Shown here in pieces: positions 4,991-48,515 of a stretch of DNA of 64,000 bases. The number at the start of each line of letters is the position of its first letter. Within the stretch, counting starts at the first letter, position 1. The notes beneath the pieces are model-generated. The model worked only from the letters and a program-made list of their open reading frames with translations, ran no database searches and had not been told where the DNA came from. The translations under genes were made by a program, and so were the position numbers. The DNA is from Streptomyces sp. WMMC940 (GTDB lineage: Bacteria > Actinomycetota > Actinomycetes > Streptomycetales > Streptomycetaceae). Location: assembly GCF_027460265.1 (NCBI RefSeq), contig NZ_JAPZBC010000001.1:7490001-7554000 (forward strand), given 5' to 3'.

Positions 4991-6861
4991 GGATCCTCCA
5001 CGGGAAGCAGGGCGGTCAGCCGGGTGCCGCACCCGGCCGGGCTGGTGACGGTCAGGGTTCCTCCGACGGCCGCGAGGCGGTCGTGCAATCCGCTGAGTCC
5101 CGATCCCGGCCTCGCGGATGCCCCGCCTCGTCCGTCGTCACTGATCTCGATCACCACGCCGCCGTCCACCGGACGGACCATCAGGCCTATTCGCTGGCAG
5201 TCGGCGTGCTTGTACGCGTTCGTCAGCGCTTCGACGATCAGGAAGTAGGCGGTCAGTTCGATGTGTCGGGGCCACCGGCACGGGGGGACATCGGTATGGA
5301 GCGGCACCGGCGCGCTGTCGGCCAGTCGGTCCACGGCCGCCGCCAGCCCGTGCGCGACCAGGTCGGTCGGGTAGATGCCCTCGGTCAGGTCCCGTAATCC
5401 GGCGATCGCCTCGCCGAGCAGTCGGTGCGCCCGCTCGACCGTCGCCCCGGCTGCCGCCGGGTCGGGCGTCGACGTGCCGGTCAATGCGTGCCGGGCGACG
5501 TCGAGGAGCAGAAGCACGGTGTAGAGCTCCTGCTGTGCCCCGTCGTGGAGATCCCGCTGGATACGGTGACGCTCCTCGTACGCGGCGGTCGAGATCCGTT
5601 CCCGCGACCGCCGTAGTTCCTCCAGCTGGGCCTGCTGAGCGGCGTACAGACGGGCGTTGTCGATGGCCAACCCGGCGACTCCGACCGCGGCCTCGGCCAG
5701 CGGGCGCTGCGCGGCCAGCGCCTCGTCGTGCTCGACGAGGGCGATGAGGGCGCCCCGGCGGCGGACCCCCGTGACGGCCCGGCCGCTCGGGGGACGCTGC
5801 GGCCGCGGCTGCGTGCCGTCTGCGGGGCCCGATGGGTGGACGAGGGTGAGCGTGGGGTCGCCCAGGGCGTCGGCGAGCACCTGCTGGAGCAGTTGGGGCG
5901 GAAGGTGGGGGTTTCCTTGCTCGATCCGCAGCACCGCACGAGCGGCTCGTCCCTGCGCGATCTCCAGCTGGACCAGCCTGGCCATCGCGACCAGCGGGAT
6001 GACGAGCAGATCAACGGCCAGCGCGGCGAGCAGGATCGCCACGCGGACGCCGACGGGTGCGCCGAGTGCGCCGGCCGTCGCGGCAGCGATGCCGCCGACC
6101 CCGGCCACCGCCGCGGCGACCCACATGGCCGTGGCATGACGACGGCGCAGCCGGGTCGACGAGGCCCAGCGGCGGGCGACCACCGCCATTACGGCCACGG
6201 TCAGCCCGATGTAGATCCAGCTGGCGGCCTGAGCCCAGACGGTGTTGGGGCCGGGCGTCATGTCCCACCACCAGGGTGGTCGTGGCGACTCCGCGACGTA
6301 CCGGCCGATCTGCGTGCCCACCGCGCCGACGTAGCCGGCCACCGCGACGGTCCTTGACGGGCGGTCCGCCAGGCGCCCGTCCGGCAACGCCAGCACGAGG
6401 TGGCCCAGTACCGCCGTCCACAGGTACGCGAGGGAGTAGCCGATCGCGAAGAGCGCGAGATGGTGGCTCGCCCGCAGGTCCCCGAGGTGGAACGCGGCGC
6501 CGCAGATCATCAGCAGTCGACCGGTTCCGGGCGTGGGGGAGCGGACCCAGACGACCAGCCCGCACAGGATCGCCAGCGCGCCGAATCCGTGCAGCACGGT
6601 TCCCATCCAGCCGTGCTCCAGGACCGGACCGGAGAGTGCGGCGGCCGTACCGGCCCAGGTGAGAGCGGCGAGGGCGCAGGCTCCCGCCTCGGTGCGGCGT
6701 CGGAGGCGGGGCGACGACCATGCTTTCCGGGCCTTGCGGGTGGCTCTCGTACCGGCCGGAAGCTCCTTCGCGGGACCGCCCTGGCGCCTCAGGTCGGACC
6801 CGGACTCCAGGACCTTCGCCGACGTCGGCCCGCCGCCGGATTGCCGGTCTGGCTCGGACAC
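4981..6861 (-). CDS. Membrane sensor histidine kinase (HisKA_3 type)
   Basis: From GTG 6861 (GGGAGG six bases upstream) the protein has a basic N-terminus and seven to eight hydrophobic segments between about residues 60 and 295, a GAF-like/linker region ending in a coiled-coil (LYAAQQAQLEELRRSRERI), then the dimerisation/phosphorylation block ERHRIQRDLHDGAQQEL with the phospho-His near residue 439. An HATPase domain follows (IVEALTNAYKHA N-box; SDDGRGG and GSGLSGLHDRLAAVGGTL). It is the partner of the overlapping NarL-type regulator. Stimulus unknown; the many membrane helices suggest a membrane-associated signal. Confidence 0.9.
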   Translation of the reverse strand: MSEPDRQSGGGPTSAKVLESGSDLRRQGGPAKELPAGTRATRKARKAWSSPRLRRRTEAGACALAALTWAGTAAALSGPVLEHGWMGTVLHGFGALAILCGLVVWVRSPTPGTGRLLMICGAAFHLGDLRASHHLALFAIGYSLAYLWTAVLGHLVLALPDGRLADRPSRTVAVAGYVGAVGTQIGRYVAESPRPPWWWDMTPGPNTVWAQAASWIYIGLTVAVMAVVARRWASSTRLRRRHATAMWVAAAVAGVGGIAAATAGALGAPVGVRVAILLAALAVDLLVIPLVAMARLVQLEIAQGRAARAVLRIEQGNPHLPPQLLQQVLADALGDPTLTLVHPSGPADGTQPRPQRPPSGRAVTGVRRRGALIALVEHDEALAAQRPLAEAAVGVAGLAIDNARLYAAQQAQLEELRRSRERISTAAYEERHRIQRDLHDGAQQELYTVLLLLDVARHALTGTSTPDPAAAGATVERAHRLLGEAIAGLRDLTEGIYPTDLVAHGLAAAVDRLADSAPVPLHTDVPPCRWPRHIELTAYFLIVEALTNAYKHADCQRIGLMVRPVDGGVVIEISDDGRGGASARPGSGLSGLHDRLAAVGGTLTVTSPAGCGTRLTALLPVEDPCA

Positions 6862-17785: not shown

Positions 17786-18640
17786 GACAAAGCCCCCCTG
17801 TTCTGACATATGCGCCCGGGCTGCGTACCGGGCTCAGAGTGGTGGCGAGGTAGGGACCAAAGCAATCGATACTCCATTTCTCGACCGGAAACCACTGCGG
17901 GCGGGAGGATCCAAACAGGCCACGCAGGCGTGCGGATGTCCATTCGGCTGGGGTTCCGGATCAAGGGCTGCGCAGCGTGCCGCCCCGCGCGGGGGAGAGC
18001 CGGGTCGGGAGCCGGCCACCGAGCGGCACGCGGAGATTGGCCAAGGACGATGTCGGCCACTGAACCGCCCTCAGGGCTGATTCATGGTGAAGGTGGGGCA
18101 CCGAGCGGGCACGCGGGCAGCCAAGCGTGTGAACGTCGACGCCGCAGCCTGATCACTCGTCACCCAACCCACAACTCTTGACAATTGCTCCGGCCTCTGC
18201 CTGGCACAGTACGCCCGCTCCCTGCCGCAGGACTGGACACCCCCGCCGGCGACCACGGCACACTCCTTGACGGGTTTGACTGCCCCGGCGGCCGTCCGGA
18301 GAGGCCGCAGCGGTGTGTTTCACGGTCCGCTCGTCGTAACGAACCACCAACTGGCCTTGTCCTGGGAGAAGCTCCAGTCCACTTGAGCAGACGTGTTCGG
18401 TGCGGCGGCAAGCGCGTACGCACGCTACCGGCCGGGCGTACGGATGCGGCTGACGTGCATCTCACAACCGGCTGACCGGCCCCTACGACCGAACAAATCA
18501 GAACGCCTGTCCGCGCATCACCGCCAAATCGACCTACTGTACGAATCCAGCCGAACTCACCCTGGGGGAAATCGTCGAAGTCTCGTGTGGAGAAGGCGGT
18601 GTGCTGGAAAACTGGGCGCCAACTGCGTCAGGGGGGTCTG
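17786..18640. other. Divergent promoter region, no supported gene
   Basis: About 850 bases between proC and the NLR pair. Short frames on both strands carry no domain. TTGACA occurs at 18178-18183 but no good -10 at 17-18 bases was found. The promoters of both neighbouring operons must lie here. Confidence 0.45.
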
Positions 18641-19000
18641 ATGACCGAGGTGGATCTCGTGGTGGCGGCGCTTGCGGCCGGTGCGTCGGCGGGGCTGATG
18701 GACACTGCGAGCACAGCTGTGCGGGACGCGTACGACGCGCTCCGTGGGGCGGTGCGCCGTCGGCTGTCCGCACGCGGCGAGGAGGTGCTGGACGCTGAGC
18801 AGGTGGAGCCGGGAGTCTGGGAGGCCCAGCTGCGTGAGGAGCTGATCGCGTCCGGTGCCGACCGGGACCAGGAACTGCTGGCGGCGGCCGAGAAGTTCCG
18901 GGAGCTGGTCCGCTCGGAAGGCAAGTACCAGGTCGACGCGCGTGGTGCCAAGGGCGTGCAGATCGGCGACCACCCCACCCAGTTCAACACGTTCAACTGA
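18641..19000 (+). CDS. Small effector-like protein with N-terminal hydrophobic helix and C-terminal amyloid-like motif (119 aa)
   Basis: Residues 5-22 are a hydrophobic stretch (VDLVVAALAAGASAGLMD) followed by a charged helical body (VRDAYDALRGAVRRRLSARG). This is comparable to HeLo/Bell-type pore-forming domains proposed for bacterial cell-death effectors. The last about 20 residues, DARGAKGVQIGDHPTQFNTF, contain V-Q-I-G-D with surrounding Gly/Asn/Gln, like the RHIM/PP class of amyloid signalling motifs. Nearly the same motif opens the next protein (DARGVSGLLIGDGLQINVL). The gene is 11 bases upstream of the STAND ATPase, so they form one operon. Function is inferred from architecture, not shown. 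Confidence 0.7.
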   Translation: MTEVDLVVAALAAGASAGLMDTASTAVRDAYDALRGAVRRRLSARGEEVLDAEQVEPGVWEAQLREELIASGADRDQELLAAAEKFRELVRSEGKYQVDARGAKGVQIGDHPTQFNTFN

Positions 19001-19011
19001 GGGCGTAGCGG

Positions 19012-22000
19012 GTGGACAGTCAGGACGGCCGACCTCCGCGGATCGACGCCCGAGGAGTGTCGGGGTTACTGATCGGTGATGGCCTGCAGATCAATGTGCT
19101 GGCCGGCGAACCGGTCCCGGTCCGCTCGGCCTATCTCTACCAGGTGCGGTCGATCGCGCCGGACAGGCTCCATGGCCGGGAGGCGGAACTCGCCGAGTTG
19201 GCCGAGTTCTGCACCCGCCCCGGCGGGAGCGCCTACCGGTGGTGGCGGGCGAAGGCGTGGGCGGGCAAGTCGGCCCTGCTGTCCTGGTTCGTGCTTCACC
19301 CACCGGCAGGCGTGCACCTCGTCTCGTTCTTCGTCACTGCGCGATTTGCAGGGCAGAGCGACCGCGAGGCGTTCATCGATGTCGTCATGGAGCAGCTCGC
19401 GGCGCTACTGGGCAGGCCCGTGCCCGCGCACCTGACCGGGGCGACCCGCGCCGCGCACCTACTTGCGCTGCTCGACGACGCGGCCACCGTCTGCCGGGAA
19501 CAGGGGTCGCGGCTCGTCCTGGTCGTGGACGGGCTCGACGAGGACCTGGGGGTGACCACCGGCCCCGACGCGTACAGCATCGCCGCACTGCTCCCGGCCC
19601 ATCCTCCCGCGGGGATGCGGGTCATCGTGGCCGGACGCCTTGCACCGCCGTTGCCCGGCGACGTGCCCGACCATCACCCACTGCGCGAGCCCGCAGCCGT
19701 ACGGCTCCTGGAGCCGTCCCGGGACGCCGAGGTCATCCGTGACGCCGCCGAGCGGGAACTCAAACGGCTGCTGACCGGCACACCCACCGAGCAGGACCTG
19801 TTGGGCCTGCTGACGGCGGCCGGCGGCGGTCTGTCCGTCCAGGACCTGGTGGAACTCACCGGCACCCGCGACCCGTGGGAGATCTCTGAGACCTTGGACA
19901 CGGTGTCCGGCCGAACTTTCGAGCAGCGCCCCGCATTGGTCCGGCACGGACCGGAGCGGCCTGAGCACGTCTACCTGCTGGCCCACGAGGACCTGCAGCA
20001 GGAGGCGGCGACCTTCCTCGCTGGAGACCGGCTGGTCGACTACCGTCGGCGCCTGCACAACTGGGTGGACGGGCACCGGGGACGGGGCTGGGACGCGCAC
20101 ACCCCCGGCTACCTGCTGCTCGGCTACTTCCGCAGTCTGCGCGCGGACGGCGACATCCCCCTGATGCTCGGCCTCGCGCTCGACCCGGGCCGCCACGCCT
20201 GGCTGCTCGACACCACCGGCGGCGACGCCACCGCCCTCGCCGAACTCACCGCGACTCAAGACGCTGTCCTCGCCGCCGCGAGCCCGAACCTGCCCGACCT
20301 GGCCAGAATCGCCCTGTGCCGTATGCGCCTGTCGGAACGTAACGCCTCGCTGCCCCTGGACGTGCCCGTCGTCTGGGCGCTGCTCGGTCGCGTCGGCCGG
20401 GCCCGGGCGCTGGCCGAGTCCATGTGGAGCGGGAGCTCGGCGAGGGCGCTCGCCGGGGTGGCGAAGGAGGTGGCCGAAGCCGGCAACCGGACGCTCGCCG
20501 AGTCAATCGCACGGAGCATCACTGAACCGGACGAGGGGGCCAAGGCGCTTTCGGCGGTTGCCGCGGCAGCAGCCAGGGACGGCGACGGGCATCGGGCCGC
20601 TGAGCTGGCCGATGCAGCTGATCGGGCGGCCCGACGGATCGACAACTTCCTTACCCGGGCGTCCTGCTGGGCCACGATGGCAACGGACGCAGCTGCGGCG
20701 GGTGACCGGCGCCGCGCCGCAGAGCTGGTTCGCGAGATCAGGGCGCTCGCCGACGATCCGCAGGCCGCTGCCGGGAGATGGTGGCTCGACGCCGATTTGG
20801 CCGAGGCGCTGGCCGCGGCCGGCGACCACGGCGACGCCCTGGCGGTGGCCCGCGCCATTGATGACCCTGATCGGCGGGCGAAGGCCCTTGCCGCTGTGGC
20901 GCGGGCGTTGGCCCACAGCGGCGACCTGACCTCGGCATATCGGTCGGCTGCTGAGGCAGAGGCCGCAGCCCGCGCGGTCAGCGGAGTCTGGCTCCAGCCT
21001 CCGATGGCGGCGGTGATCGAGGCGATGGCCGTCGCTGGGGCCCCGGATCGTGCGGCCGAGCTCACGGCCGAGGCTGTCGTCGGACTCGTCGACGGCTCCG
21101 ACGACCGCCCGACCTTCCAGGTGGGAGGCGATCTGGCCATCCTCACCGGTGCCGCAGCCCGAGCGGGCGACCACGGCCGTGCCGAGGCACTGGCGCGGGC
21201 CAACCCCGACGCGGCGTCCAAGGCGCGGGCGCTGGCTGCAGTGGCCGAGGCGGTCGTGCGGTCGGGAGACCACCGACGCGGGCTCGATCTGGTGTCGGAG
21301 GCCCAGGAAGTGGCCCGTGCGGTCCGGCCCCCCGTGCACCACCAGGTGGAACTCGCGGCCTTGGCCGGCGTGGCGGCCCGGTCGGGAGACCTCGACTGGG
21401 CCCTGGCCATCGCCGGGACGGTGCACGACCCCGCCCGTGCAGTGGCCGCGCGGAGAGCCGTGGCCAGGGCCGCGGCGAACGCGGGGCACTGCGATCGTGC
21501 CGAGGCCATCGCCCGTGCCATCGACAACGAGAGCGGCCAGCGCGACGCTGTACTGGCCCTCGTCGCCGAGGCCGTCCTCGAAACGGGTGCCGTGGAGCGG
21601 GCCGTGGAGATCATCGTCACGATCGAGACGTTGCGCCCGCGGATGCTGGCCATGGCAGCGATGGCGGGCATCAGAGAGGCATCTGGCGACCGCGATGATG
21701 CGATCAAACTGATGGACTGGCTCCTGGCAGGCATCCCCGAAGCGGGCGAGGACCTGAACGAGTCGAGCGTGCTCGCCCTGGCCGAGGTTGTCGCCGACAC
21801 CGGTGGCGTCGACCAGTCCGAGCGCGTCGCCCGCGTGATCAAGGACTTTGCGCTACAGGCCCGGGCACTGGCGGCGGTGGCGCGGGCAGCCGCCCGCAGC
21901 GGACAGGTGAGCCGAGCCACTGCGCTCGTCGACGAGGCCGAGGCGGTGGCCCGCAGCGTCGGCGGACCTCGCGATCGGGGACGTACCCTGGCATCTCTCA

Positions 22001-22593
22001 TCGAGACGATCAACGGGACGGGAGACCAGGAGCAGGTCGTCGTGGTCGTCGGCGGCGACAGGGCGCTGGCCCGCCCCGTCGACGGAACGTCGGTGCGGAT
22101 ACGCACCCTGGCGGTGGTTACCGAGGCGATCGCCTGGATCGGGGATCACGGACGGGCTGCCGCGCTCGCCGCTGAAATCGAGGACGCACTTGAGGCGGCG
22201 GGCTCGCACAAGAACGATGAACTGCTCGCGGGACTCGCCCGGGCAGCGGCCGAGACGGGACAGCCCGAGCGGGCGGAGGAGCTCGCGGACCGGATCACCC
22301 GCCCGGAGATCCAAGCCCGAACCCTGGCCCACCTGGCCAACGCGGCCGACCCCGAGGCAGCCCAACGCCTCACGGCACGGGCTTTCGCCATCGACTTGTG
22401 GACGGCTGTGGACGCGCTGGACCGGCTGGAACTGGATGTGCTGCTCCTGCTCGCGGAGGACTTGGGCGTCGCTGGGTTGCGCACCGCACCGCCGGACCCC
22501 GTCGACCCTCCGCCAGCCAGTCCGGCGTCGGCCCGCCGCCGTCGGATGCGCCCCACCCTGCGCTGGCCCCGCCGCACCGGTCGAGAACCGTGA
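19012..22593 (+). CDS. NLR-like STAND ATPase with N-terminal amyloid-like motif and long helical-repeat sensor (1193 aa)
   Basis: Residues 12-30 repeat the C-terminal motif of the upstream effector (DARG..GL.IGD). A P-loop NTPase follows: RAKAWAGKSALLSWF (Walker A, residues 80-93; the first Gly of GxxxxGKS is Ala, Lys86 and Ser87 are kept), FFVTARFAGQSDREAF, and Walker B LVLVVDGLDED (Asp173, Asp176). The winged-helix/linker region reaches about residue 430. From there to about 1130 a repeating pattern of A-x-A-x-A-x-(GD)-x-(R/A)-A-x-x-LA resembles TPR/HEAT-like helical repeats, the part that senses ligands in STAND proteins. GTG start with no strong ribosome site; likely coupled to the effector gene. 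It would bind a trigger, oligomerise and seed the effector's amyloid fold. Confidence 0.8.
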   Translation: MDSQDGRPPRIDARGVSGLLIGDGLQINVLAGEPVPVRSAYLYQVRSIAPDRLHGREAELAELAEFCTRPGGSAYRWWRAKAWAGKSALLSWFVLHPPAGVHLVSFFVTARFAGQSDREAFIDVVMEQLAALLGRPVPAHLTGATRAAHLLALLDDAATVCREQGSRLVLVVDGLDEDLGVTTGPDAYSIAALLPAHPPAGMRVIVAGRLAPPLPGDVPDHHPLREPAAVRLLEPSRDAEVIRDAAERELKRLLTGTPTEQDLLGLLTAAGGGLSVQDLVELTGTRDPWEISETLDTVSGRTFEQRPALVRHGPERPEHVYLLAHEDLQQEAATFLAGDRLVDYRRRLHNWVDGHRGRGWDAHTPGYLLLGYFRSLRADGDIPLMLGLALDPGRHAWLLDTTGGDATALAELTATQDAVLAAASPNLPDLARIALCRMRLSERNASLPLDVPVVWALLGRVGRARALAESMWSGSSARALAGVAKEVAEAGNRTLAESIARSITEPDEGAKALSAVAAAAARDGDGHRAAELADAADRAARRIDNFLTRASCWATMATDAAAAGDRRRAAELVREIRALADDPQAAAGRWWLDADLAEALAAAGDHGDALAVARAIDDPDRRAKALAAVARALAHSGDLTSAYRSAAEAEAAARAVSGVWLQPPMAAVIEAMAVAGAPDRAAELTAEAVVGLVDGSDDRPTFQVGGDLAILTGAAARAGDHGRAEALARANPDAASKARALAAVAEAVVRSGDHRRGLDLVSEAQEVARAVRPPVHHQVELAALAGVAARSGDLDWALAIAGTVHDPARAVAARRAVARAAANAGHCDRAEAIARAIDNESGQRDAVLALVAEAVLETGAVERAVEIIVTIETLRPRMLAMAAMAGIREASGDRDDAIKLMDWLLAGIPEAGEDLNESSVLALAEVVADTGGVDQSERVARVIKDFALQARALAAVARAAARSGQVSRATALVDEAEAVARSVGGPRDRGRTLASLIETINGTGDQEQVVVVVGGDRALARPVDGTSVRIRTLAVVTEAIAWIGDHGRAAALAAEIEDALEAAGSHKNDELLAGLARAAAETGQPERAEELADRITRPEIQARTLAHLANAADPEAAQRLTARAFAIDLWTAVDALDRLELDVLLLLAEDLGVAGLRTAPPDPVDPPPASPASARRRRMRPTLRWPRRTGREP

Positions 22594-23066
22594 TCACTCT
22601 TCTCAGGCTCCGCTCGGCAGGACGATGCTCACATCCCGGGCGTCAGGGTCGACCGCACTCTTCTGGTTGCTCAGGGGTATCCGTTGGCCGAGGTGGGCCC
22701 GCTGGTGCCGTTAGCGAGGTACGCCCTGCCGCCGCCTCGTACGATCGTGTCGGGGTGACTCAACGTGGGTACGCGGTGCCCGCTTTGTTTCGGTCTGACG
22801 ACATTGAGGGGGCGCGGGCCTCCGTCCAGGTCACAGGCCGGAGCGGGCGAGCGCGAGTGAGGTTGCCAGCTCCGGTGCAGCACCAACGCCCCATCACCCG
22901 GGAAGCTAGTAGTACTTCGTCAGGTCGATCCGGGTGGGGGGTGTCTCCTGGTCGTGGGTAACTGGCGGTGGCTGGCCCGATATCGCCCGGCCGCTGGACA
23001 GCCCGCGCCGTCCACACCTGGGCAAACGAGGAAACCTCGGTGGGTCTGGTTCAACTTCTGCCCTGG
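22594..23066. other. Intergenic, no supported gene
   Basis: About 470 bases. A plus-strand frame from GTG 22755 (69 codons) has no domain. The sequence is the boundary between the NLR operon and the mobile-element-rich region. Confidence 0.45.
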
Positions 23067-23505: not shown

Positions 23506-24357
23506 TCACACGTTGCGTTCCTCGGATGTTCCGAAGCGTGCCAGGCAGTGCCACACCTTCTTGAGCGCCTGTTGGTCATGGAGACCGGTGCGTGCGGCGT
23601 CGCCGATGATCCGGGGCGTGAGGTCACCGTCGACGGCGATCTCCGTGCCCAGTTCGACGTACTCGTGTCCGCGGTAGTCCGGGTGGAGTGCGAGTTCTTC
23701 GACGGTGAGTCGGAGTCCCGGGTGCCAGTCGAGCCGACATGGGAGGCGGCGGGCGGTGGCTTCCACGTCCGTGTCTCGATAGCTCGGGTCCAGGACGAGC
23801 GCCTCGACATCGCGAGCCAGTATGAGTGGGCCGTGCACTTGTGCCTCGATGTAGTCGTCGAGTGCGTCCTGGTCGTCGTTCTCAGCCAGCTCTATGAGGG
23901 ACGAGCTGGCCGCGACTCCGAAGGCCGTTGGTCCGAAGAAGCTGTCCGGGTAGCAGAACGTGGCTCGGGTGAGGGCCTCGGCAGTCAGCCGAAGGTGCGC
24001 GGAGCCGAACCGGGGCGCCCCACCGAGCGGCTTGCGCCGGAAGTTCAACGCGCCATAGACAGGTCGCTCATGGGCGGGTGTGTAGTCATAGGCGCCCCCG
24101 AAGATCCGGCTCTCCCAGCGCCATCGGTCACCGCCGGGGTGGGCTGTCAAGCCGCCGTTGCTGGTGCCGGTGACGAACTGCGAGCGATAAATGCCGTCCT
24201 CGGCCAACGCGAGCAGGATCGGCCGACCGTGCACTGTGCGGTCGGGGTGAAAGTTCAGGGTCACCCGCAGCGCGGGGTCGACCGGGGTTCCGGACGACAG
24301 CGAGGCGACGTGGCGGATTGCCTGTTCCTGAGCAGACAGGGCTGGACCAGCGTTCAT
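23506..24357 (-). CDS. DUF3626-family protein (about 283 aa)
   Basis: Conserved blocks VTLNFHPDR, LAEDGIYRSQFVTGTSNGGLTAHPGGDRWRWESRIFGGAYD and PVYGALNFRR are characteristic of DUF3626, with LILARDVEALVLDPSYRDTDVE near the C-terminus. The His, Arg and Asp clusters suggest an ADP-ribosylating or similar fold, but the family function is not established. ATG 24357 (MNAGPALSAQEQAIRHV) aligns best with relatives; ATG 24393 is in frame and none has a good ribosome site. It lies between the integrase fragment and the IS1182-type element and appears intact. Confidence 0.8.
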   Translation of the reverse strand: MNAGPALSAQEQAIRHVASLSSGTPVDPALRVTLNFHPDRTVHGRPILLALAEDGIYRSQFVTGTSNGGLTAHPGGDRWRWESRIFGGAYDYTPAHERPVYGALNFRRKPLGGAPRFGSAHLRLTAEALTRATFCYPDSFFGPTAFGVAASSSLIELAENDDQDALDDYIEAQVHGPLILARDVEALVLDPSYRDTDVEATARRLPCRLDWHPGLRLTVEELALHPDYRGHEYVELGTEIAVDGDLTPRIIGDAARTGLHDQQALKKVWHCLARFGTSEERNV

Positions 24358-24420
24358 CAGCGCAGTATGCCCGAGCCTGATCATCGTGTGCATCTGCGTT
24401 GGCTGACGTCGGCTAGCTTT

Positions 24421-26255
24421 GACTCTGTCGGGGATCTTGGAGTTGTCGAGGTCAGGTTCCCAGGGTGCGCCAGGATTTCGGCCGGGGTAGCTGCCTCTGG
24501 TCGAGGTAGTTCTGGAAGGCCGTTGGTCGGCGGGGTGCGAGGGCTTCCTCAGCCGGTGACAGCCCGCCGAGGCGCTCGATGTTGACGGCGATGGCCGTCA
24601 GCACGTGCTGGACGTGGGCTTTGCTCTGTCCTCGGTAGCGGCAGCGCCGCATACCGTGTCCGTGGGCGAACTCGTTGACCGTGCCCTCCACTCCGGAGCG
24701 GACCGCATAGCGGGCCTTCCACTCGGGCGTCTGCTGTTCGGCACGGACGCGGAGTTGCAGGTCACGGAGCTCACGCGGGGGAAAGCCCACGGTGCGGGCG
24801 CTGTCGGCGGTGCTGGTGCACTGGGCGCGGGCCGGGCAGGGACGGCACTGGCTCTTGGTAAACCGTGCCACGATCAGTGGGGCCGCGGTGGGCGAGGATG
24901 TCGGGTAGGGGCCGTGCCAGCCCGCGCTGACCTGCCCCTGCGGGCAGGTGACCTGCTGACGGTCGAAGTCGATGTGGAAGTCGTCCCGGGCGAAGCCCTC
25001 GCCTCGGCGGTGCTGGTGCGTGGGGTTGGTCTTCAGCGGACCGGAGACGGTGACCTGGTGTTCACGGGCGGCGTGTTCGAGGTGGGGCAGGGAGGTGTAG
25101 CCGGCGTCGACCAGGTGCTCGGCGGGCAGCAGCCCGCGGCGGGCCAGGCGGGTGTGGATGCCGGGCAGGACCTGGCTGTCGTGGGTGGTGGACGCGGTGG
25201 TGGCCACGTCCGTGATCACGTTGGGGCCGTCGGGAGCGCAGGTCTCGGTCAGATGGGCGGCGAACCCCTTCCAGCTGATGATGTGCCCGTGCCGTGCATA
25301 GCGGGCCGAGGTGTCGTAGGGCGAGACGACCGCCCCCGACGACGGCGGCAGACCCGCCCCGCCTTCCTTCTCGGCGGTGCGCCAGCGCAGGTGCCCAGCA
25401 GCATCACGGTGATAGTTCTGCACCATGATCTGCCGCAGGGCCTGAACGCGGGGACCGGACATGCGGTCCGCTCCGTACCGGTAGAGGTGTTCCAGGAGCC
25501 GGACGGCGTCGTTTCCGGTGGCAAGGATCCTGGTCATGGGCTTGGTGGGGTTCTTGCCCAGGCGGACCGGCCGGCCGTAGCGCAGCCCCCAGTCCTCGTC
25601 GACCAGCCCGTCCAGCAGGTGAGGGGAGATGCCCGCGATCTCTTCGAGTGCGGCGCGGACCGCCTCGGTGATCAACTCCAGGCGGGTCAGGTCGCGCACC
25701 GCGGCCAGGACGTGGGTGGAGTCGGTGCGCTGTGTGGTGCGCTCGCGCACCAGTCCGGCCTCCTTGAGACGGGCCAGCGCCAGGTCGAGAAGACGGTCGG
25801 CACGGTCGTCCTCGGTAAGGCGGTCGCGGAAGTCGGCCAGCACGCTGTGGTGGAAGCCTGGATCGTCCAGTTCCATGGCCATCGCGTACTTGAAGTCGAT
25901 GCGGCAGCGGACCGCCTCGGCGGTCTGCCGGTCCGACAGGCCCAGCAAGAACTGCAGTACGCAGACGGTGGCCAGCTGAGCGGGCGAGAGACCCGGCCGT
26001 CCGTCCCTGGGGTACCAGTCGACGAAGTCCTCGTCGCGCCACAGCCCGTCCAGCCGGTCACGCACCCATATCGCCGTCGTGCCGCCCGGGTTGCTTGCCC
26101 GCGCGATCTGCGCGGTCAGAGGCGGAACGTGCTCACCGGAACGGGGGCGCAGGGACAACGGGCACCTCGACAGCTGCTTCGGTCGGCAGAACTACCCGAG
26201 CATGCCCGTTGACCATGCTGCCGCACCGGGAAACTCCAAGATCCCCGACAGAGTC
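24421..26255 (-). mobile_element. IS1182-family insertion sequence, complete
   Basis: Perfect 24-bp terminal inverted repeats starting GACTCTGTCGGGGATC bound the element (24421-24444 and the complement at 26232-26255) and enclose one intact transposase gene. Short GCTA sequences occur outside both ends (24412-24415 and 26258-26261) and may be a target duplication, although they do not abut the repeats symmetrically. Confidence 0.85.
24452..26158 (-). CDS. IS1182-family transposase (568 aa)
   Basis: Full-length DDE transposase: N-terminal [65 protein letters not shown], then [21 protein letters not shown] with the first catalytic Asp, [25 protein letters not shown] second Asp region, [10 protein letters not shown] zinc-knuckle-like Cys cluster, and [44 protein letters not shown] with the catalytic Glu. 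The start appears to be TTG 26158; GTG 26128 is an alternative. No internal stop, so it may be active. Confidence 0.92.
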
Positions 26256-33575: not shown

Positions 33576-34910
33576 TGTATCGACGGCCACTCGGTGATCT
33601 CGTTTTTGAGGCTATGCGGTGAGTTCGGTGGGCACGACGGTCTCGTCGGTTTCTGACCCGATCGGGTGGAGGCGGGCCTTGGCGAGGAGCTCGCGGCCCA
33701 TGTAGCGGCGAGCCTCGGTCCACTCATCGTTCTGTTCGGCCAGGACAGCGCCGACGAGCCGGATCACGGCGGTGCGGTCGGGGAAGATGCCGACCACATC
33801 GGTGCGACGCCGGATCTCCTTGTTCAGTCGCTCCTGCGGATTGTTCGACCAGATCTGCCGCCAGATCTCACGCGGGAACGCGGTGAAGGCCAGCAGGTCG
33901 TGCTGAGCTGCGTCCAAGTGGGCTGCCGCTTTGGGGAACTTGGCCTCCAGCGCGTCCAGGACGTGCCGCATCTGGGCCTTCACGGCATCGGTGTCGGGCT
34001 GTTCGAAGACCGTCCGCAGCAGGGTGGCCACCCATGGCTGGGCCGATTTCGGAACCTGGGTCAGCAAATTTCGGGCGTAATGGGTGCGGCATCGCTGCCA
34101 GGACGCGCCCGGCAGGACCGCGCCGATCGCGTTCACCAGGCCGGTGTGGGCGTCGGAGACGACCAGCTGGACACCGGACAGGCCACGGGCGGTCAGCGAG
34201 CGCAGGAAGGCGAGCCAGCCCGCGCCGTCCTCGGCGGTGGCGACGTCGATGCCGAGGATCTCCCGGTGTCCGTCTGCGTTGACGCCGACCGCGATCAGGG
34301 CGTGGACGTTGATGATGCGGCCGCCCTCGCGGACCTTCTGGGTGAGCGCATCGACCCAGACGAACGCATAGGGGCCGGCGTCCAGAGGCCGGTTGCGGAA
34401 TGCGGCAACCTGCTCGTCCAGGTGTTTGGCCATCGCGCTGACCTGGGACTTCGACAGCTGGGTGACGCCGAGGGACTCGGCGAGTTTCTCGACTCTGCGG
34501 GTGGAGACGCCGAGAAGGTAGGGGGTGGCGACGACCGAGATGAGGGCCTGTTCGGCCCGTCGGCGCCGTTCGAGGAGCCAGTGCGGGAAGTAGCTGCCCT
34601 GCCGCAGCTTGGGGACGGCGAGTTCGACCGTCCCCGCGCGGGTGTCCCACTCGCGCGGGCGGTAGCCGTTGCGGTGGTTGACGCGTTCGTCGCTGACCTG
34701 CCCGTATTCGGCGTTGCAGAGCGCGTCGGCCTCCGCGGACATGAGCGCGTCGGCGAACGTCTTGACCATCGCGCGCAGCAGATCGGGACTCGCCGCGGCG
34801 AGGTTGTCCTCCGCGAGGGCGTGCAGGGGCAGACTGTCTGGTGCGGTCATCGTGCTGATCTCCTTCGAGGCTTCGACACTTCGAAGATCAGCCGGTGGCC
34901 GTTCATCTAT
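33576..34910 (-). mobile_element. IS256-family element (third type in this window)
   Basis: Imperfect inverted repeats around ACGGCCAC and TGATCT (left 33576-33603; right complement within 34881-34910) flank an intact transposase. Right of it, a conserved hypothetical gene is cut, so the insertion is likely the cause. Confidence 0.6.
33612..34850 (-). CDS. IS256-family transposase (412 aa)
   Basis: Mutator-type transposase: YRPREWDTRAGTVELAVPKLRQGSYFP, LERRRRAEQALISVVATPYLLGVSTRRVEKLAESLGV, FVWVDALTQKVREGGRIINVHALIAVGVNADGHREILGIDV (first Asp), LSGVQLVVSDAHTGLVNAI (second Asp), WQRCRTHYARNLL, and FPREIWRQIWSNNPQERLNKEIRRRTDVVGIFPD (Glu). Start ATG 34850. Divergent from the two IS256 copies at 45-48 kb (different terminal repeats), so it is a separate element. 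Confidence 0.92.
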   Translation of the reverse strand: MTAPDSLPLHALAEDNLAAASPDLLRAMVKTFADALMSAEADALCNAEYGQVSDERVNHRNGYRPREWDTRAGTVELAVPKLRQGSYFPHWLLERRRRAEQALISVVATPYLLGVSTRRVEKLAESLGVTQLSKSQVSAMAKHLDEQVAAFRNRPLDAGPYAFVWVDALTQKVREGGRIINVHALIAVGVNADGHREILGIDVATAEDGAGWLAFLRSLTARGLSGVQLVVSDAHTGLVNAIGAVLPGASWQRCRTHYARNLLTQVPKSAQPWVATLLRTVFEQPDTDAVKAQMRHVLDALEAKFPKAAAHLDAAQHDLLAFTAFPREIWRQIWSNNPQERLNKEIRRRTDVVGIFPDRTAVIRLVGAVLAEQNDEWTEARRYMGRELLAKARLHPIGSETDETVVPTELTA

Positions 34911-34929
34911 GCGGGCACCATCCCAACGC

Positions 34930-35470
34930 CGGAGCAAACCCCCGGATCAGGTCGAACCCGTACACCACTTCCCTGGACGCAACCACGCCTCCAGGCGTTC
35001 GCTGCGGACGCTCAAGACCGGTTGCAGCTCGAGTCGGTCCGCGTTGTTGCCCAGCAACACGCCTACGACTCCGACCAGCCGCGCGAGGCGCGTCGGCACT
35101 GGGCTGAGCTGTCGCTGCTGGCGAACCGGCGTATGCGCGGCGCTGGCGCTGGGAGATCAGCGCGCGAGATCCATCAGGAATTCGTGCTGCGAACGTGGGT
35201 GATGGAGCACCTCGGTTCCGAGGGTGAGAACCCCGACTGGATTCCGGAGGCATTGGGGGACGACACGCTCGCCGCACTGGCGTTCTCTCCATCGGACGCC
35301 GCGGCCCTCGCCAGCAACCGGCGCGCGAGCTCCCCATCGAACAGATCCGCGAGCTGCGGCGGTACAAGAACCTGACAGCGCACCTGGAGAGGCTCATCGG
35401 CCGTCTGCAACCCGGCCCGACGCGCGATGGACTTCTCCCCTGGATTGAGACACGTCAGCTGTTGCCTTGA
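34930..35470 (+). pseudogene. Conserved hypothetical gene cut by the IS256-type element and frameshifted
   Basis: RRHWAELSLLANRRMRGAGA, HQEFVLRTWVMEHLGSEGENPDWIPEALGDDTLAALAFSPSDAAALA in one frame; after a shift at about 35310, RELPIEQIRELRRYKNLTAHLERLIGRLQPGPTRDGLLPWIETRQLLP-stop. Strongly acidic/helical composition suggests a real soluble protein. The 5' part is absent beyond the insertion sequence. Function unknown. Confidence 0.5.
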
Positions 35471-45200: not shown

Positions 45201-45226
45201 CGCCGTGGCTACGGCAAAGGTGCCGC

Positions 45227-46642
45227 GGTCGTGTCCCTTCTCGTGGTGTAGCCGATCATCCGGCGGTCGTGTTGGTGGTGTCGGGTAGCGCGGGGGCGCT
45301 TTCGGAGCGCTCGGCGGGGTAGAGCTGGTCCATGCTTCCTTCGGGGCAGGTAGCGGCGGGGGAAGGCGATCCATTCGTCGTGCAGTTCGAAGAGCACGGC
45401 GGTGACCAGCCGTAGGAGCGCGTCATCGTTGGGGAAGACCTGGACGACGTCGGTGCGGCGCTTGACCTCGCGGTTGATCCGCTCCAGTGGATTGGTGGAC
45501 TGGATCTTCTTCCCATGTCGCTCCGGGAAGGCGGCGAAGGCGGTCAGATCGTCCTTCGCGTCCAGCAGCATCTCCCTGACCTTCGGGAACTGCTTGCCGA
45601 GCATGTCGGCGACGGTGTCGAGCTGGGTGCGGACCGCGTCGGCTGTGGGCTGGGCGAAGATCGTGCGGATCGTCGCGGCGACCATCTCCGCCGCTTCCTT
45701 CTTGATCACGCTGAACACGTTGCGCAGGAAGTGAACGCGACAGCGCTGGTAGGCGGCTCCGAGCATGACCTTGCGGATGGCCTTGACCAGCCCCAAGTGG
45801 TGGTCTCCGATCACGAGCCGGACCCCGGTCAGACCGCGTTCGCGCAGGTGACGCAGGAACTCGGTCCAGAACATCTCGGTCTCGCTGTCGCCTACCATCA
45901 CGCCCAGCACCTCGCGGCCGCCGTCCTCGGTGATCCCGGTGGCGATCACCACTGCCCTCGACACGATCTGGTGATCGACCCTCGCCTTGCAGTAGGTGGC
46001 GTCCAGGTAGATGTACGGGAAGCGGACGTGGTCCAGGGTCCGGGCACGGAACGCGGTCAGCTGGCCGTCCAGGTCCTGGCAGATCCGTGAGACCTCGCTC
46101 TTGGATATCCCGGTGTCCGCGCCGAGGGCCTTGACCAGGTCGTCGACCGACCGCGTGGAGACGCCGTGGACGTATGCCTCCATGATGACCGCGTAGAGGG
46201 CCTGGTCGATGCGGCGGCGTCGCTCCAGCAGCGCGGGGAAGAAGCTCCCCGACCGGAGCTTGGGGATCGCAAGGTCCAGGTCGCCGGCCTGCGTGCTGAC
46301 CGTCTTGTCGCGGTGGCCGTTGCGAAGCGCGGTGCGCGTCTCCGTGCGCTCATTCCACTCCGCGCCGATCCGGGCCGTGGCCTCGGCCTCGATCAGCTCC
46401 TGGAGCATCCGCTCGGCCACGCCGCGGACGAGTTCAAGCCCGTCCGCCGAACGTAGTGACTCCAGCAGGCGTAGTAGGTCAGACTGGGACAGGGCCACCG
46501 TGCACCTCCCGGGTTGAACTGGCCGTTCACCAAGGAGAGTTGCAGGTGGCCCGCCTGCTGGGCAGGGAGCGGAATCGCTGTCAGCGCACGCCCCCGGCGC
46601 ACTCCCTAACCGTGATCGGCTACACCACGTCAAGGGACGCCA
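45227..46642 (-). mobile_element. IS256-family element, copy A (frameshifted)
   Basis: Terminal sequences GGTCGTGTCCCTTCTCGTGGTGTAGC (left, 45227) and the complement ending at 46642 match those of copy B. No target duplication is visible: flanking eight bases differ (GGTGCCGC versus TCGCTTCA), so one side was rearranged or deleted. Confidence 0.7.
45256..46498 (-). pseudogene. IS256-family transposase, frameshifted near its C-terminus
   Basis: MALSQSDLLRLLESLRSADGLELVRGVAERMLQELIEAEATARIGAEW, LAIPKLRSGSFFPALLERRRRIDQALYAVIMEAYVHGVSTRSVDDLVKALGAD, FPYIYLDATYCKAR (Asp), GVRLVIGDHHLGLVKAIRKV (Asp), KIQSTNPLERINREVKRRTDVVQVFPN (Glu). GTG 46498. At about 45345 an inserted base breaks AFPRRYLP from EGSMDQLYP, which copy B keeps in frame. 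About 86% similar to copy B by eye. Probably inactive or altered at the very end. Confidence 0.75.
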
Positions 46643-46660
46643 TCGCTTCACCGTTGGACG

Positions 46661-47179
46661 GTGGCCGATCCCGGCCGCCGATTCGATGACCTGTTCAACT
46701 TCGTGCACGATCCGGCGACGCTGTTGGTGGCGTTCGATCGGGTCGCGGGCAACCAGGGAGCCCGGACTCCCGGCGTCGACGGCCTGACGGCCACCGATGT
46801 TGAGGAGTCGATCGGTGTTCCCGGGTTCCTGAACGACTTGCGGGCCGCCCTCAAGGACGGTTCGTTCCGTCCTCTGCCGGTGCGGGAACGCAGTATCCCC
46901 AAGCCGGGAGGCTCGGGAAAGGTCCGCAAGCTCGGGATTCCGACGATTGCGGACCGGGTTGTTCAGGCGGCGCTGAAGCTGGTGCTGGAACCGATCTTCG
47001 AGGCCGACTTCAAGCCGGTCTCCTACGGGTTCCGGCCCCGACGGCGGGCCCAGGACGCGATCGCCGAGATCCACTATTTCGGCAGCCGGGGATACCGCTG
47101 GGTGCTGGATGCGGACATCGAGGCGTGCTTTGACTCGATCGACCACACGGCCCTGATGGACCGAGTGCGTCGCCGGGTG
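46661..47179 (+). pseudogene. ltrA: Group II intron reverse transcriptase/maturase, N-terminal piece
   Basis: FDDLFNFVHDPATLLVAFDRVAGNQGARTPGVDGLTATDVEESIGVPGFLNDLRAALKDGSFRPLPVRERSIPKPGGSGKVRKLGIPTIADRVVQAALKLVLEPIFEADFKPVSYGFRPRRRAQDAI then RWVLDADIEACFDSIDH. These are RT motifs 0-3 of group II intron proteins. The 5' end is truncated by IS256 copy A and the protein stops abruptly after DRVRRRV at the copy B insertion. Joined with the second piece it would resume as RRVKDKRVLALVK without loss of frame. Confidence 0.85.
47170..47179. repeat. Target-site duplication of IS256 copy B, left
   Basis: TCGCCGGGTG, repeated exactly at 48516-48525 on the other side of the insertion. Confidence 0.85.
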
Positions 47180-48515
47180 GGTCATGTCCCCTGTGGTGGT
47201 GTAGCCGGACCGATCTGGTCGTTGTTGGGGTAGATCTTGTCCATACTGCCTTCGGGGAGGTAGCGGCGGGGGAAGGCGATCCACTCGTCGTGCATCTCGA
47301 TGAGCACGGCGGTGGTGAGGCGTTCGAGGGCGTCGGGGTTGGGGAAGATCTGCACGACGTCGGTCCGGCGTTTGATCTCGCGGTTGATCCGCTCCAGCGG
47401 ATTGGTCGACTGGATCTTCTTCCAGTGCCGATCAGGGAAGTCCGCGAACGCGGTCAAGTCCTCCTTCGCTTCCAGGAGCATGGACCTGACCTTGGGGAAC
47501 TGGCGGCCGAGCATGTCGGCGACGGTGTCGAGCTGGGCCCGGACGGCTGCGGCGTCGGGCTGGGCGAAGACCGTGCGGATGGTGGCCGCCACCATCTCCG
47601 CGGAATCCTTCGGGATCACCGCGAAGACGTTGCGCAGGAAATGAACGCGGCACCTTTGGTAGCCGGCGCCGAGCATGACCTTGCGCACGGCCTTGACCAG
47701 ACCGCTGTGGTGGTCGGCGATGACCAGGCGGACCCCGGACAGACCGCGCTCGCGCAGGGAGCGCAGGAACTCGCTCCAGAACGCCTCGGTCTCGCTGTCC
47801 CCGACCATCAGGCCCAGCACTTCGCGTCCGCCGTCCTCGGTGATGCCGGTGGCGATGACTACGGCCTGGGACACGATCTGATGGTTCACGCGGGCCTTGC
47901 AGTACGTCGCGTCCAGGTAGATGTAGGGGAAACGGGTGTGATCCAGCGGCCGGGTGCGGAAGACGGTGAGTTCGGCGTCCAGCCCGGTGCAGAGCCGGGA
48001 CACCTCGCTCTTGGAGATGCCGCTGTCAGCACCCAGTGCCCTGACCAGGTCGTCGACGCTGCGGGTGGACACTCCGTGGACGTATGCCTCGACGATGACG
48101 GCGTAGAGGGCCTGGTCGATGCGGCGACGGCGTTCCAGCAGGCTGGGGAAGAAGCTGCCGGTGCGGACCTTGGGGATGGCCAGGTCCAGGTCCCCGGCCT
48201 GCGTGGTCAGTACTTTGTCGCGGTGACCGTTGCGCCAGGTCGTACGGGTGTCGGCGTGCTCGCCGGGCTCCGCGCCGATGTGGGCGGTGGCCTCGGCCTC
48301 GATGAGTTCCTGCAGGATCCGCTGGGCCAGGACCCTGATCAACTCGATTCCGTCCGCCGTACGCAGTGACTCCATCAGCCGAAGTAAGTCATGCTGGGAC
48401 AAGGCCATCGTGTCACCTCTCTCAACGAGCTTCGCTACTCGGAGAGTTGCGCGATGGCCGCCTCATGACCAGGGGCTATGCGGAGATCGCTGCTACACCA
48501 CTCGGCGGGACACCA
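47180..48515 (-). mobile_element. IS256-family element, copy B (1336 bp)
   Basis: Bounded by GGTCATGTCCCCTGTGGTGG on the left and a near-complement ending GGGACACCA on the right, inserted between identical 10-base duplications, and carrying an intact transposase. The IS256 family usually duplicates 8-9 bases; the extra match may be chance. Confidence 0.85.
47182..48408 (-). CDS. IS256-family transposase, copy B, intact (408 aa)
   Basis: MALSQHDLLRLMESLRTADGIELIRVLAQRILQELIEAEATAHIGAEP, LAIPKVRTGSFFPSLLERRRRIDQALYAVIVEAYVHGVSTRSVDDLVRALGADSG, FPYIYLDATYCKARVNHQIV (first Asp), GVRLVIADHHSGLVKAVRKVMLGAGYQRCRVHFLRNVF (second Asp), KKIQSTNPLERINREIKRRTDVVQIFPN (Glu), YLPEGSMDKIYPNNDQ. ATG 48408. 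Intact and flanked by a fresh target duplication, so transposition may be recent. Confidence 0.92.
   Translation of the reverse strand: MALSQHDLLRLMESLRTADGIELIRVLAQRILQELIEAEATAHIGAEPGEHADTRTTWRNGHRDKVLTTQAGDLDLAIPKVRTGSFFPSLLERRRRIDQALYAVIVEAYVHGVSTRSVDDLVRALGADSGISKSEVSRLCTGLDAELTVFRTRPLDHTRFPYIYLDATYCKARVNHQIVSQAVVIATGITEDGGREVLGLMVGDSETEAFWSEFLRSLRERGLSGVRLVIADHHSGLVKAVRKVMLGAGYQRCRVHFLRNVFAVIPKDSAEMVAATIRTVFAQPDAAAVRAQLDTVADMLGRQFPKVRSMLLEAKEDLTAFADFPDRHWKKIQSTNPLERINREIKRRTDVVQIFPNPDALERLTTAVLIEMHDEWIAFPRRYLPEGSMDKIYPNNDQIGPATPPQGT

What the first reader, a model, noticed from the sequence alone, without database searches (positions are those of the whole stretch)
18641..22593. Effector/STAND ATPase pair sharing an amyloid-like motif (candidate immune or cell-death system)
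The last residues of the 119-aa protein (DARGAKGVQIGDHPTQFNTF) and residues 12-30 of the 1193-aa STAND ATPase (DARGVSGLLIGDGLQINVL) share D-A-R-G-x-x-G-[VL]-x-I-G-D. This is the arrangement known for amyloid-signalling NLRs: effector C-terminus, receptor N-terminus, adjacent genes. The effector's N-terminal hydrophobic helix and charged body resemble pore-forming HeLo/Bell-like domains. The ATPase has Lys86/Ser87 in the P-loop and Asp173/Asp176 in Walker B, and about 700 residues of helical repeats as sensor. The motif has a divergent core relative to canonical V-Q-I-G repeats, so it could be a new subtype. Seen: motif similarity and domains. Inferred: amyloid seeding and cell death.
Basis: partly seen in the sequence, partly recalled or inferred. 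Interest (0 to 1): 0.85.

Follow-up and report, generated by a model that had tools for sequence, protein, structure and literature searches.

The report
Streptomyces receptor-effector pair sharing amyloid motif
Two neighbouring Streptomyces genes encode a small helical protein and an immune-type sensor that carry the same short RHIM-like amyloid motif, so this is a new example of an already described bacterial signalling pair, likely used to trigger cell death or defence.

Summary
The 119-aa protein (18641-19000) and the 1193-aa STAND ATPase (19012-22593) lie 11 bp apart and share a motif at the effector C-terminus and receptor N-terminus. It is more than chance: a profile without the window's receptor copy finds that copy genome-wide at E=8e-5, and the pair's two copies are the only hits below E=1. 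It is not a new subtype: the effector core is the canonical VQIG, close to a published BASS3 peptide, and the profile's five PDB hits (E up to 10) are all RIPK3/RIPK1 RHIMs. Among 56 effector/partner pairs, 21 of 29 BASS3-like tails face a BASS3-like partner, against 0 of 27 other tails. Both motifs are predicted disordered. In 4 of 21 related receptors a trypsin-like domain is fused at this end, which marks it as the output end. Best reading: a new member of the known Bell/BASS3/NLR amyloid signalosomes; amyloid seeding and cell death remain inferred. Unexpected: in one ortholog a ~200-bp block spanning both motifs seems to have been replaced at once.

The parts
18641..19000 (+). 119-aa effector gene: helical bundle (Bell-type) plus C-terminal BASS3 motif
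18647..18919 (+). helical domain, residues 3-93
   Evidence: six helices, pLDDT mostly 75-90
18932..18994 (+). effector BASS3 motif VDARGAKGVQIGDHPTQFNTF, residues 98-118, predicted disordered
19012..22593 (+). 1193-aa STAND ATPase with helical (TPR-like) repeats, GTG start
19045..19101 (+). receptor BASS3 motif DARGVSGLLIGDGLQINVL, residues 12-30, predicted disordered
   Evidence: (E=8.2e-5 with this copy not in the profile)
19258..19272 (+). Walker A, W83-A-G-K86-S87
   Evidence: invariant in 5 of 5 aligned sequences
19510..19542 (+). Walker B strand, residues 167-177, with D173 and D176
20107..22422 (+). helical repeat region, residues 366-1137 (presumed sensor)
   Evidence: PADLOC STAND_TPR
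18549..22905 (.). largest extent of DNA similar to orthologs L007-L009; the window's flanks are not similar to the flanks held for them
18960..19180 (.). junction carrying both motifs; apparently replaced as a block between the window type and ortholog L009

Best explanation
The pair is a two-gene Bell/BASS3/NLR signalosome of Streptomyces. The STAND receptor senses an unknown trigger through its helical repeats, binds nucleotide and oligomerises (inferred from the family). That brings several copies of its disordered N-terminal BASS3 motif together, where they adopt a RHIM-type cross-beta fold (inferred). This template converts the matching C-terminal motif of the effector (inferred), which clusters the effector's helical domain and switches it on. 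The effector then most likely acts on the membrane and kills or arrests the cell, for example to stop phage spread (inferred, weakest step). Shown here: gene anatomy, motif identity, pairing across genomes, predicted disorder of the motifs, and the output position of the receptor N-terminus.
For: In the own genome the motif profile has no other hit below E=1 (150 of 228 candidates scored). BASS3 identity: effector tail close to the published BASS3 amyloid peptide of Frankia ORT49035.1; 5 of 5 PDB hits of the motif profile are RIPK3/RIPK1 RHIMs, E 0.011-0.57. Pairing: 21 of 29 BASS3-like tails versus 0 of 27 other tails face a BASS3-like partner; shuffled partners reach the observed score in 0 of 20000 trials, both for all 56 pairs and for 35 clusters at 70%. 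Bell effectors with other tails share other motifs with their own neighbours: L057, L064, L065 and L081 rank their own partner first of 56. Both motifs predicted disordered. The same STAND class has a fused trypsin-like domain at this end in 4 of 21 cases. dN/dS against L008 is 0.24 (effector) and 0.33 (receptor). The pair behaves as a cassette and the family is patchy, 35 of 393 Streptomyces genomes.
Against: No amyloid or toxicity data for these proteins were seen. Pfam RHIM gives no hit to the window effector up to E=1. The receptor core is L-L-I-G, lacking the conserved Q. Residue-level co-variation within BASS3 STAND pairs is weak (n=11 p=0.039; n=6 without the window clade p=0.35). Only 7 of 56 effectors rank their own partner first (median rank 11), and two of these seven (L040, L051) have no motif tail. 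8 of 29 BASS3-like tails lack a BASS3-like partner directly downstream. The effector helix is only moderately hydrophobic and no fold match was significant. Effector dN/dS against L009 is 0.70. Pfam named no defence family among 19 other window ORFs scanned; PADLOC was run on the pair only.
Confidence: 0.72

Rival explanations
1. The motifs mediate a plain heterotypic docking contact (short beta-strand pairing) that recruits the effector to the receptor, without a self-propagating amyloid.
For: Only sequence and predicted disorder are shown. The window receptor has lost the core Q (2 of 21 BASS3 partners: window and L007) and one residue between GD and Q (3 of 21: window, L007, L008).
Against: The motif family is RHIM-like, and a close BASS3 peptide from Frankia aggregated and bound Congo red in print (PMC8086366, passages).
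Confidence: 0.18
2. The signalling module is real, but the effector does not attack membranes; the helical domain is an adaptor or scaffold that recruits or activates another protein.
For: Moderate hydrophobicity (best 19-residue mean 1.46; 11 of 56 effectors reach 1.6); no significant fold match; some BASS3 effectors have a short partner with a hydrophobic stretch instead of an NLR.
Against: The shared 4.0-4.4-kb cassette holds only these two genes, so no third component travels with them.
Confidence: 0.3
3. The shared motif is a chance or low-complexity similarity.
For: Short motif.
Against: Genome-wide E=8.2e-5 for the held-out copy; 21 of 29 versus 0 of 27 in relatives.
Confidence: 0.01

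Closest known systems
Bell/BASS3/NLR two-gene amyloid signalosomes of filamentous bacteria (Dyrka et al. 2020 J Mol Biol, not held; described in PMC7889193, passages)
   Same: Adjacent genes; short helical effector with C-terminal BASS3; STAND receptor with N-terminal BASS3; filamentous actinobacterium
   Different: Receptor core L-L-I-G with one residue fewer between GD and Q; effector tail HPTQFN in place of the common xNTQ[HT]N
RHIM of RIPK3/RIPK1
   Same: V-Q-[IV]-G-D core and flank; the only PDB hits of the motif profile
   Different: Host proteins unrelated; window effector is below Pfam RHIM detection
Fungal PP motif (HELLP-type effector with NLR)
   Same: RHIM-like amyloid motif used between an NLR and a cell-death effector (PMC7885112, PMC7889193, passages)
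PADLOC STAND_TPR (PDLC01173)
   Same: ATPase and repeat region, E=9.3e-103
   Different: Model description has an Xre-HTH fusion and a CRISPR context; here the N-terminus is BASS3

Membership tests
Bell/BASS/NLR signalosome | Adjacent genes, motif at effector C-terminus and receptor N-terminus | tested here: met
Bell/BASS/NLR signalosome | Motif belongs to BASS3 | tested here: met
   My own profile A2 and comparison with the printed Frankia BASS3 peptide; the authors' own HMM was not available
Bell/BASS/NLR signalosome | Effector domain is Bell | tested here: inconclusive
   Helical bundle; partial matches in cyanobacterial plasmids (E 2e-6 to 4e-4), one beside a NACHT gene (L064); original Bell HMM not held; hydrophobicity moderate
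Bell/BASS/NLR signalosome | Receptor is a STAND/NLR with repeats | tested here: met
   Walker A and B, PADLOC STAND_TPR, model; Pfam NPHP3_N stays below its cut-off (20.3 of 24.8 bits)
Bell/BASS/NLR signalosome | Motif forms amyloid and seeds its partner | not testable with these tools
   needs peptides
Bell/BASS/NLR signalosome | Effector causes cell death or defence | not testable with these tools
   needs genetics; the outcome in bacteria is said to remain to be explored in PMC7889193 (passage)
RHIM (Pfam PF12721) | Reaches the Pfam gathering score | tested here: not met
   no hit for the window effector at E up to 1; homologs L010 and L013 reach 18.5 and 16.5 bits of 20. RHIM-like, not filed as RHIM
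HeLo/HELL/MLKL helical bundles | Shared fold | tested here: inconclusive
   no significant match
PADLOC STAND_TPR | Matches the model | tested here: met
   E=9.3e-103, best stretch residues 45-501

The most novel reading that the evidence does not exclude
The back-to-back placement of the two motifs over ~200 bp makes them a single exchangeable plug: one recombination event can rewrite both sides of the signalling pair at once, as seems to have happened between the window type and ortholog L009, so pairs can change specificity without losing the match.
Probability: 0.3. Interest if true: 0.55.

Novelty: new member of a known kind. Interest (0 to 1): 0.38.

Why it matters
It adds a compact pair from Streptomyces in whose genome my motif profile found no other copy, so a knockout test should be free of cross-talk from paralogs. 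The outcome of bacterial amyloid signalling was described as still to be explored in 2021 (PMC7889193, passage). The relatives gathered here also suggest that one receptor scaffold carries interchangeable outputs (BASS3, other short N-termini, fused protease), and they give one case of joint exchange of both motifs.

Tried and rejected

Rows dropped before the 56-pair count: ORFs without a profile match at E 1e-4 that starts at or before position 30 and reaches position 80; identical effectors merged; one effector (L078) without a downstream ORF. The patterns for tail and partner differ slightly at one position. L010 counts as a miss although its STAND lies upstream and has a degenerate motif. 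The 56 include an apparently truncated Streptomyces subfamily without tails.

Full report
What is there. The effector ORF starts at ATG 18641 and ends at 19000 (119 aa); the STAND ORF starts at GTG 19012 and ends at 22593 (1193 aa), 11 bp downstream on the same strand. The genome is 7.67 Mb in three contigs, with the pair about 122 kb from the end of the main contig. A same-genus genome (G034) has a contig of the same length (135,285 bp) and an identical effector as Streptomyces wuyuanensis, so the host genus is Streptomyces (inference).

The shared motif. Effector VDARGAKGVQIGDHPTQFNTF and receptor DARGVSGLLIGDGLQINVL align over G-x-x-G-[VL]-x-I-G-D...Q-x-N-x-[FL]. I built a profile from 20 motifs: the window effector and 19 from relatives (effectors and partners, one of them the receptor motif of the related locus L028), leaving the window receptor out. 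In the whole genome it finds the effector at 5.9e-15 and the receptor at 8.2e-5; the next hit is at 1.25 (150 of 228 candidates scored). Against 177,635 distinct PDB sequences the same profile has five hits up to E=10, all RIPK3 or RIPK1 (0.011-0.57). A BASS3 peptide of a Frankia effector printed in PMC8086366 (VDLRDAKGVQVGDGNVQINRF; passages) is closely similar; that peptide showed beta aggregation and Congo red staining there. Pfam RHIM itself does not reach the window effector and stays below its cut-off in homologs. The motif is therefore BASS3, RHIM-like, and not a new subtype.

Pairing across genomes. Effector relatives were gathered with the window protein and then a 12-sequence profile and from plasmids. 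They are patchy: 35 of 393 Streptomyces genomes at E 1e-5, 26 of 391 in the order at 1e-10, 8 of 394 in the class at 1e-5, 5 of 396 in the phylum at 1e-10. In these four searches only the best 11 candidates of each listed genome were scored, so the counts are lower bounds. For 56 distinct effectors I took the downstream ORF by codon GC3, not by motif (the longest ORF for the two cyanobacterial loci L064 and L065). A BASS3-like pattern is in 29 tails; 21 of these 29 partners have it too, against 0 of 27 partners of other effectors. Shuffling partners never reached the observed similarity in 20,000 trials (own mean 43.2, shuffled 30.1; 35 clusters at 70%: 46.7 versus 32.5). Individual specificity is modest: 7 of 56 rank their own partner first, median rank 11. 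Effectors with other tails share other motifs with their neighbours, including Nostocales plasmids (L064, L065), L057 and L081 (own partner first) and L054 (second). This reproduces the published logic with independently gathered data. Inside BASS3 the finer match is weak: all pairs 1 of 20,000 (n=21), clusters 166 of 20,000 (n=14); STAND partners only p=0.039 (n=11), and p=0.35 once the window clade is removed (n=6); other partner types p=0.009 (n=10). Shared ancestry is not separated from co-variation.

Structure. AlphaFold gives the effector six helices over residues 3-93 (pLDDT mostly 75-90) and a disordered tail 97-119 that holds the motif (five sequences, pTM 0.65). The receptor model is poorer (mean pLDDT 61.9, pTM 0.39) but shows residues 1-44 disordered, an ATPase-like alpha/beta part, and paired helices over about 366-1137. 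So the motif is not predicted to be part of a folded domain. Fold searches with the effector gave nothing significant.

The receptor end looks like an output socket. Of 150 Streptomyces genomes, 21 (the window's included) have this STAND class at E 1e-40. In 4 of 21 the N-terminus is BASS3 with a BASS3-ended small ORF upstream: the window (L094), L095, L096 and L098. In 4 of 21 it is a fused trypsin-like domain (L108, L111, L112, L114; Trypsin_2 E 1.4e-9 to 6.6e-13). Four more (L097, L109, L110, L113) have long N-termini in which Pfam found only the ATPase. The other nine have short N-termini of other kinds (read by eye); in L101 that sequence (FGHVIGNVTVYQ) resembles the tail of a different small upstream protein (FGQVAGDVHMNRG). 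A protease sitting where BASS3 sits here is independent support that this end carries the output.

Mobility and selection. DNA similarity to orthologs L007, L008 and L009 covers 18549-22713, 18602-22597 and 18549-22905, with no similarity between their held flanks and window 10000-32000, so the pair behaves as a two-gene cassette. dN/dS for the effector is 0.17, 0.70 and 0.24 against L007, L009 and L008, and for the receptor 0.31, 0.35 and 0.33; the effector values rest on few changes.

A block exchange. Between the window and L009 the junction 18941-19111 differs at 27 of 171 sites against 134 of 3748 elsewhere, and dS in receptor codons 1-36 is 0.44 (10 changes in 30 synonymous sites) against 0.08 in codons 37-440, which points to replacement and not to selection on residues. 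At informative sites L009 agrees with the more distant type L028 at 15 of 30 in 18960-19180 and at 7 of 56 elsewhere in 18641-19580 (Fisher p=2.6e-4). Both motifs differ together (tail QFNTFN versus QTNTFH; head GLLIGDG-LQINVL versus GLQVGDGGLQINLL). This is one event, found post hoc; the window against L007 and L008 does not show it, nor, clearly, do 8 other close pairs.

Literature. Passages seen: PMC8086366, PMC7889193, PMC7885112, PMC12881547 and PMC12261475. The founding paper is not held. Searches listed no experimental test of a Bell/BASS3 pair in bacteria that I recognised from titles and abstract starts; preprints and most subscription journals are not covered.

Verdict. A sound observation, correctly read in outline, and a new member of a known kind. 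Anatomy, pairing and motif identity are shown; amyloid templating, membrane action and defence are inferred.

Noticed in passing
L013:1881-2765, L014:1911-2579, L015:1918-2562, L031:795-1457 (-), also partners in L017, L032, L033: Seven Bell/BASS3-type loci have, in place of an NLR, a short partner (215-295 aa in the four measured) with N-terminal BASS3, then a hydrophobic stretch (19-residue mean above 1.8 in 4 of 7) and a C-terminal part; Pfam gave nothing at cut-off for the 4 scanned. Possibly a membrane-spanning sensor.
   Followed up: partly
L010:805-5901 and 6001-6375: Gene order reversed: the STAND gene lies upstream of the effector, with a degenerate motif DLRGSHAVIVGDHGTIYNN.
   Followed up: partly
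L016, L018, L020, L041, L045-L048 and others: A Streptomyces subfamily of Bell-like proteins ends before the motif and shows no matching neighbour; looks like decaying or orphan copies.
   Followed up: no
window 23506-24393: DUF3626 gene next to the pair (E 1.7e-64), matched in two stretches; whether it is intact was not checked.
   Followed up: no
window 24452-26158, 33612-34937, 45209-47284: Transposase genes (one DDE_Tnp_1_6 type, two Mutator type) in the window.
   Followed up: no
L064:4950-8070 and L065:4941-5649: Conjugative plasmids of Nostocales carry Bell-like proteins that share other motifs with the next ORF; in L065 that ORF is short and is followed by an ISH3 transposase.
   Followed up: partly
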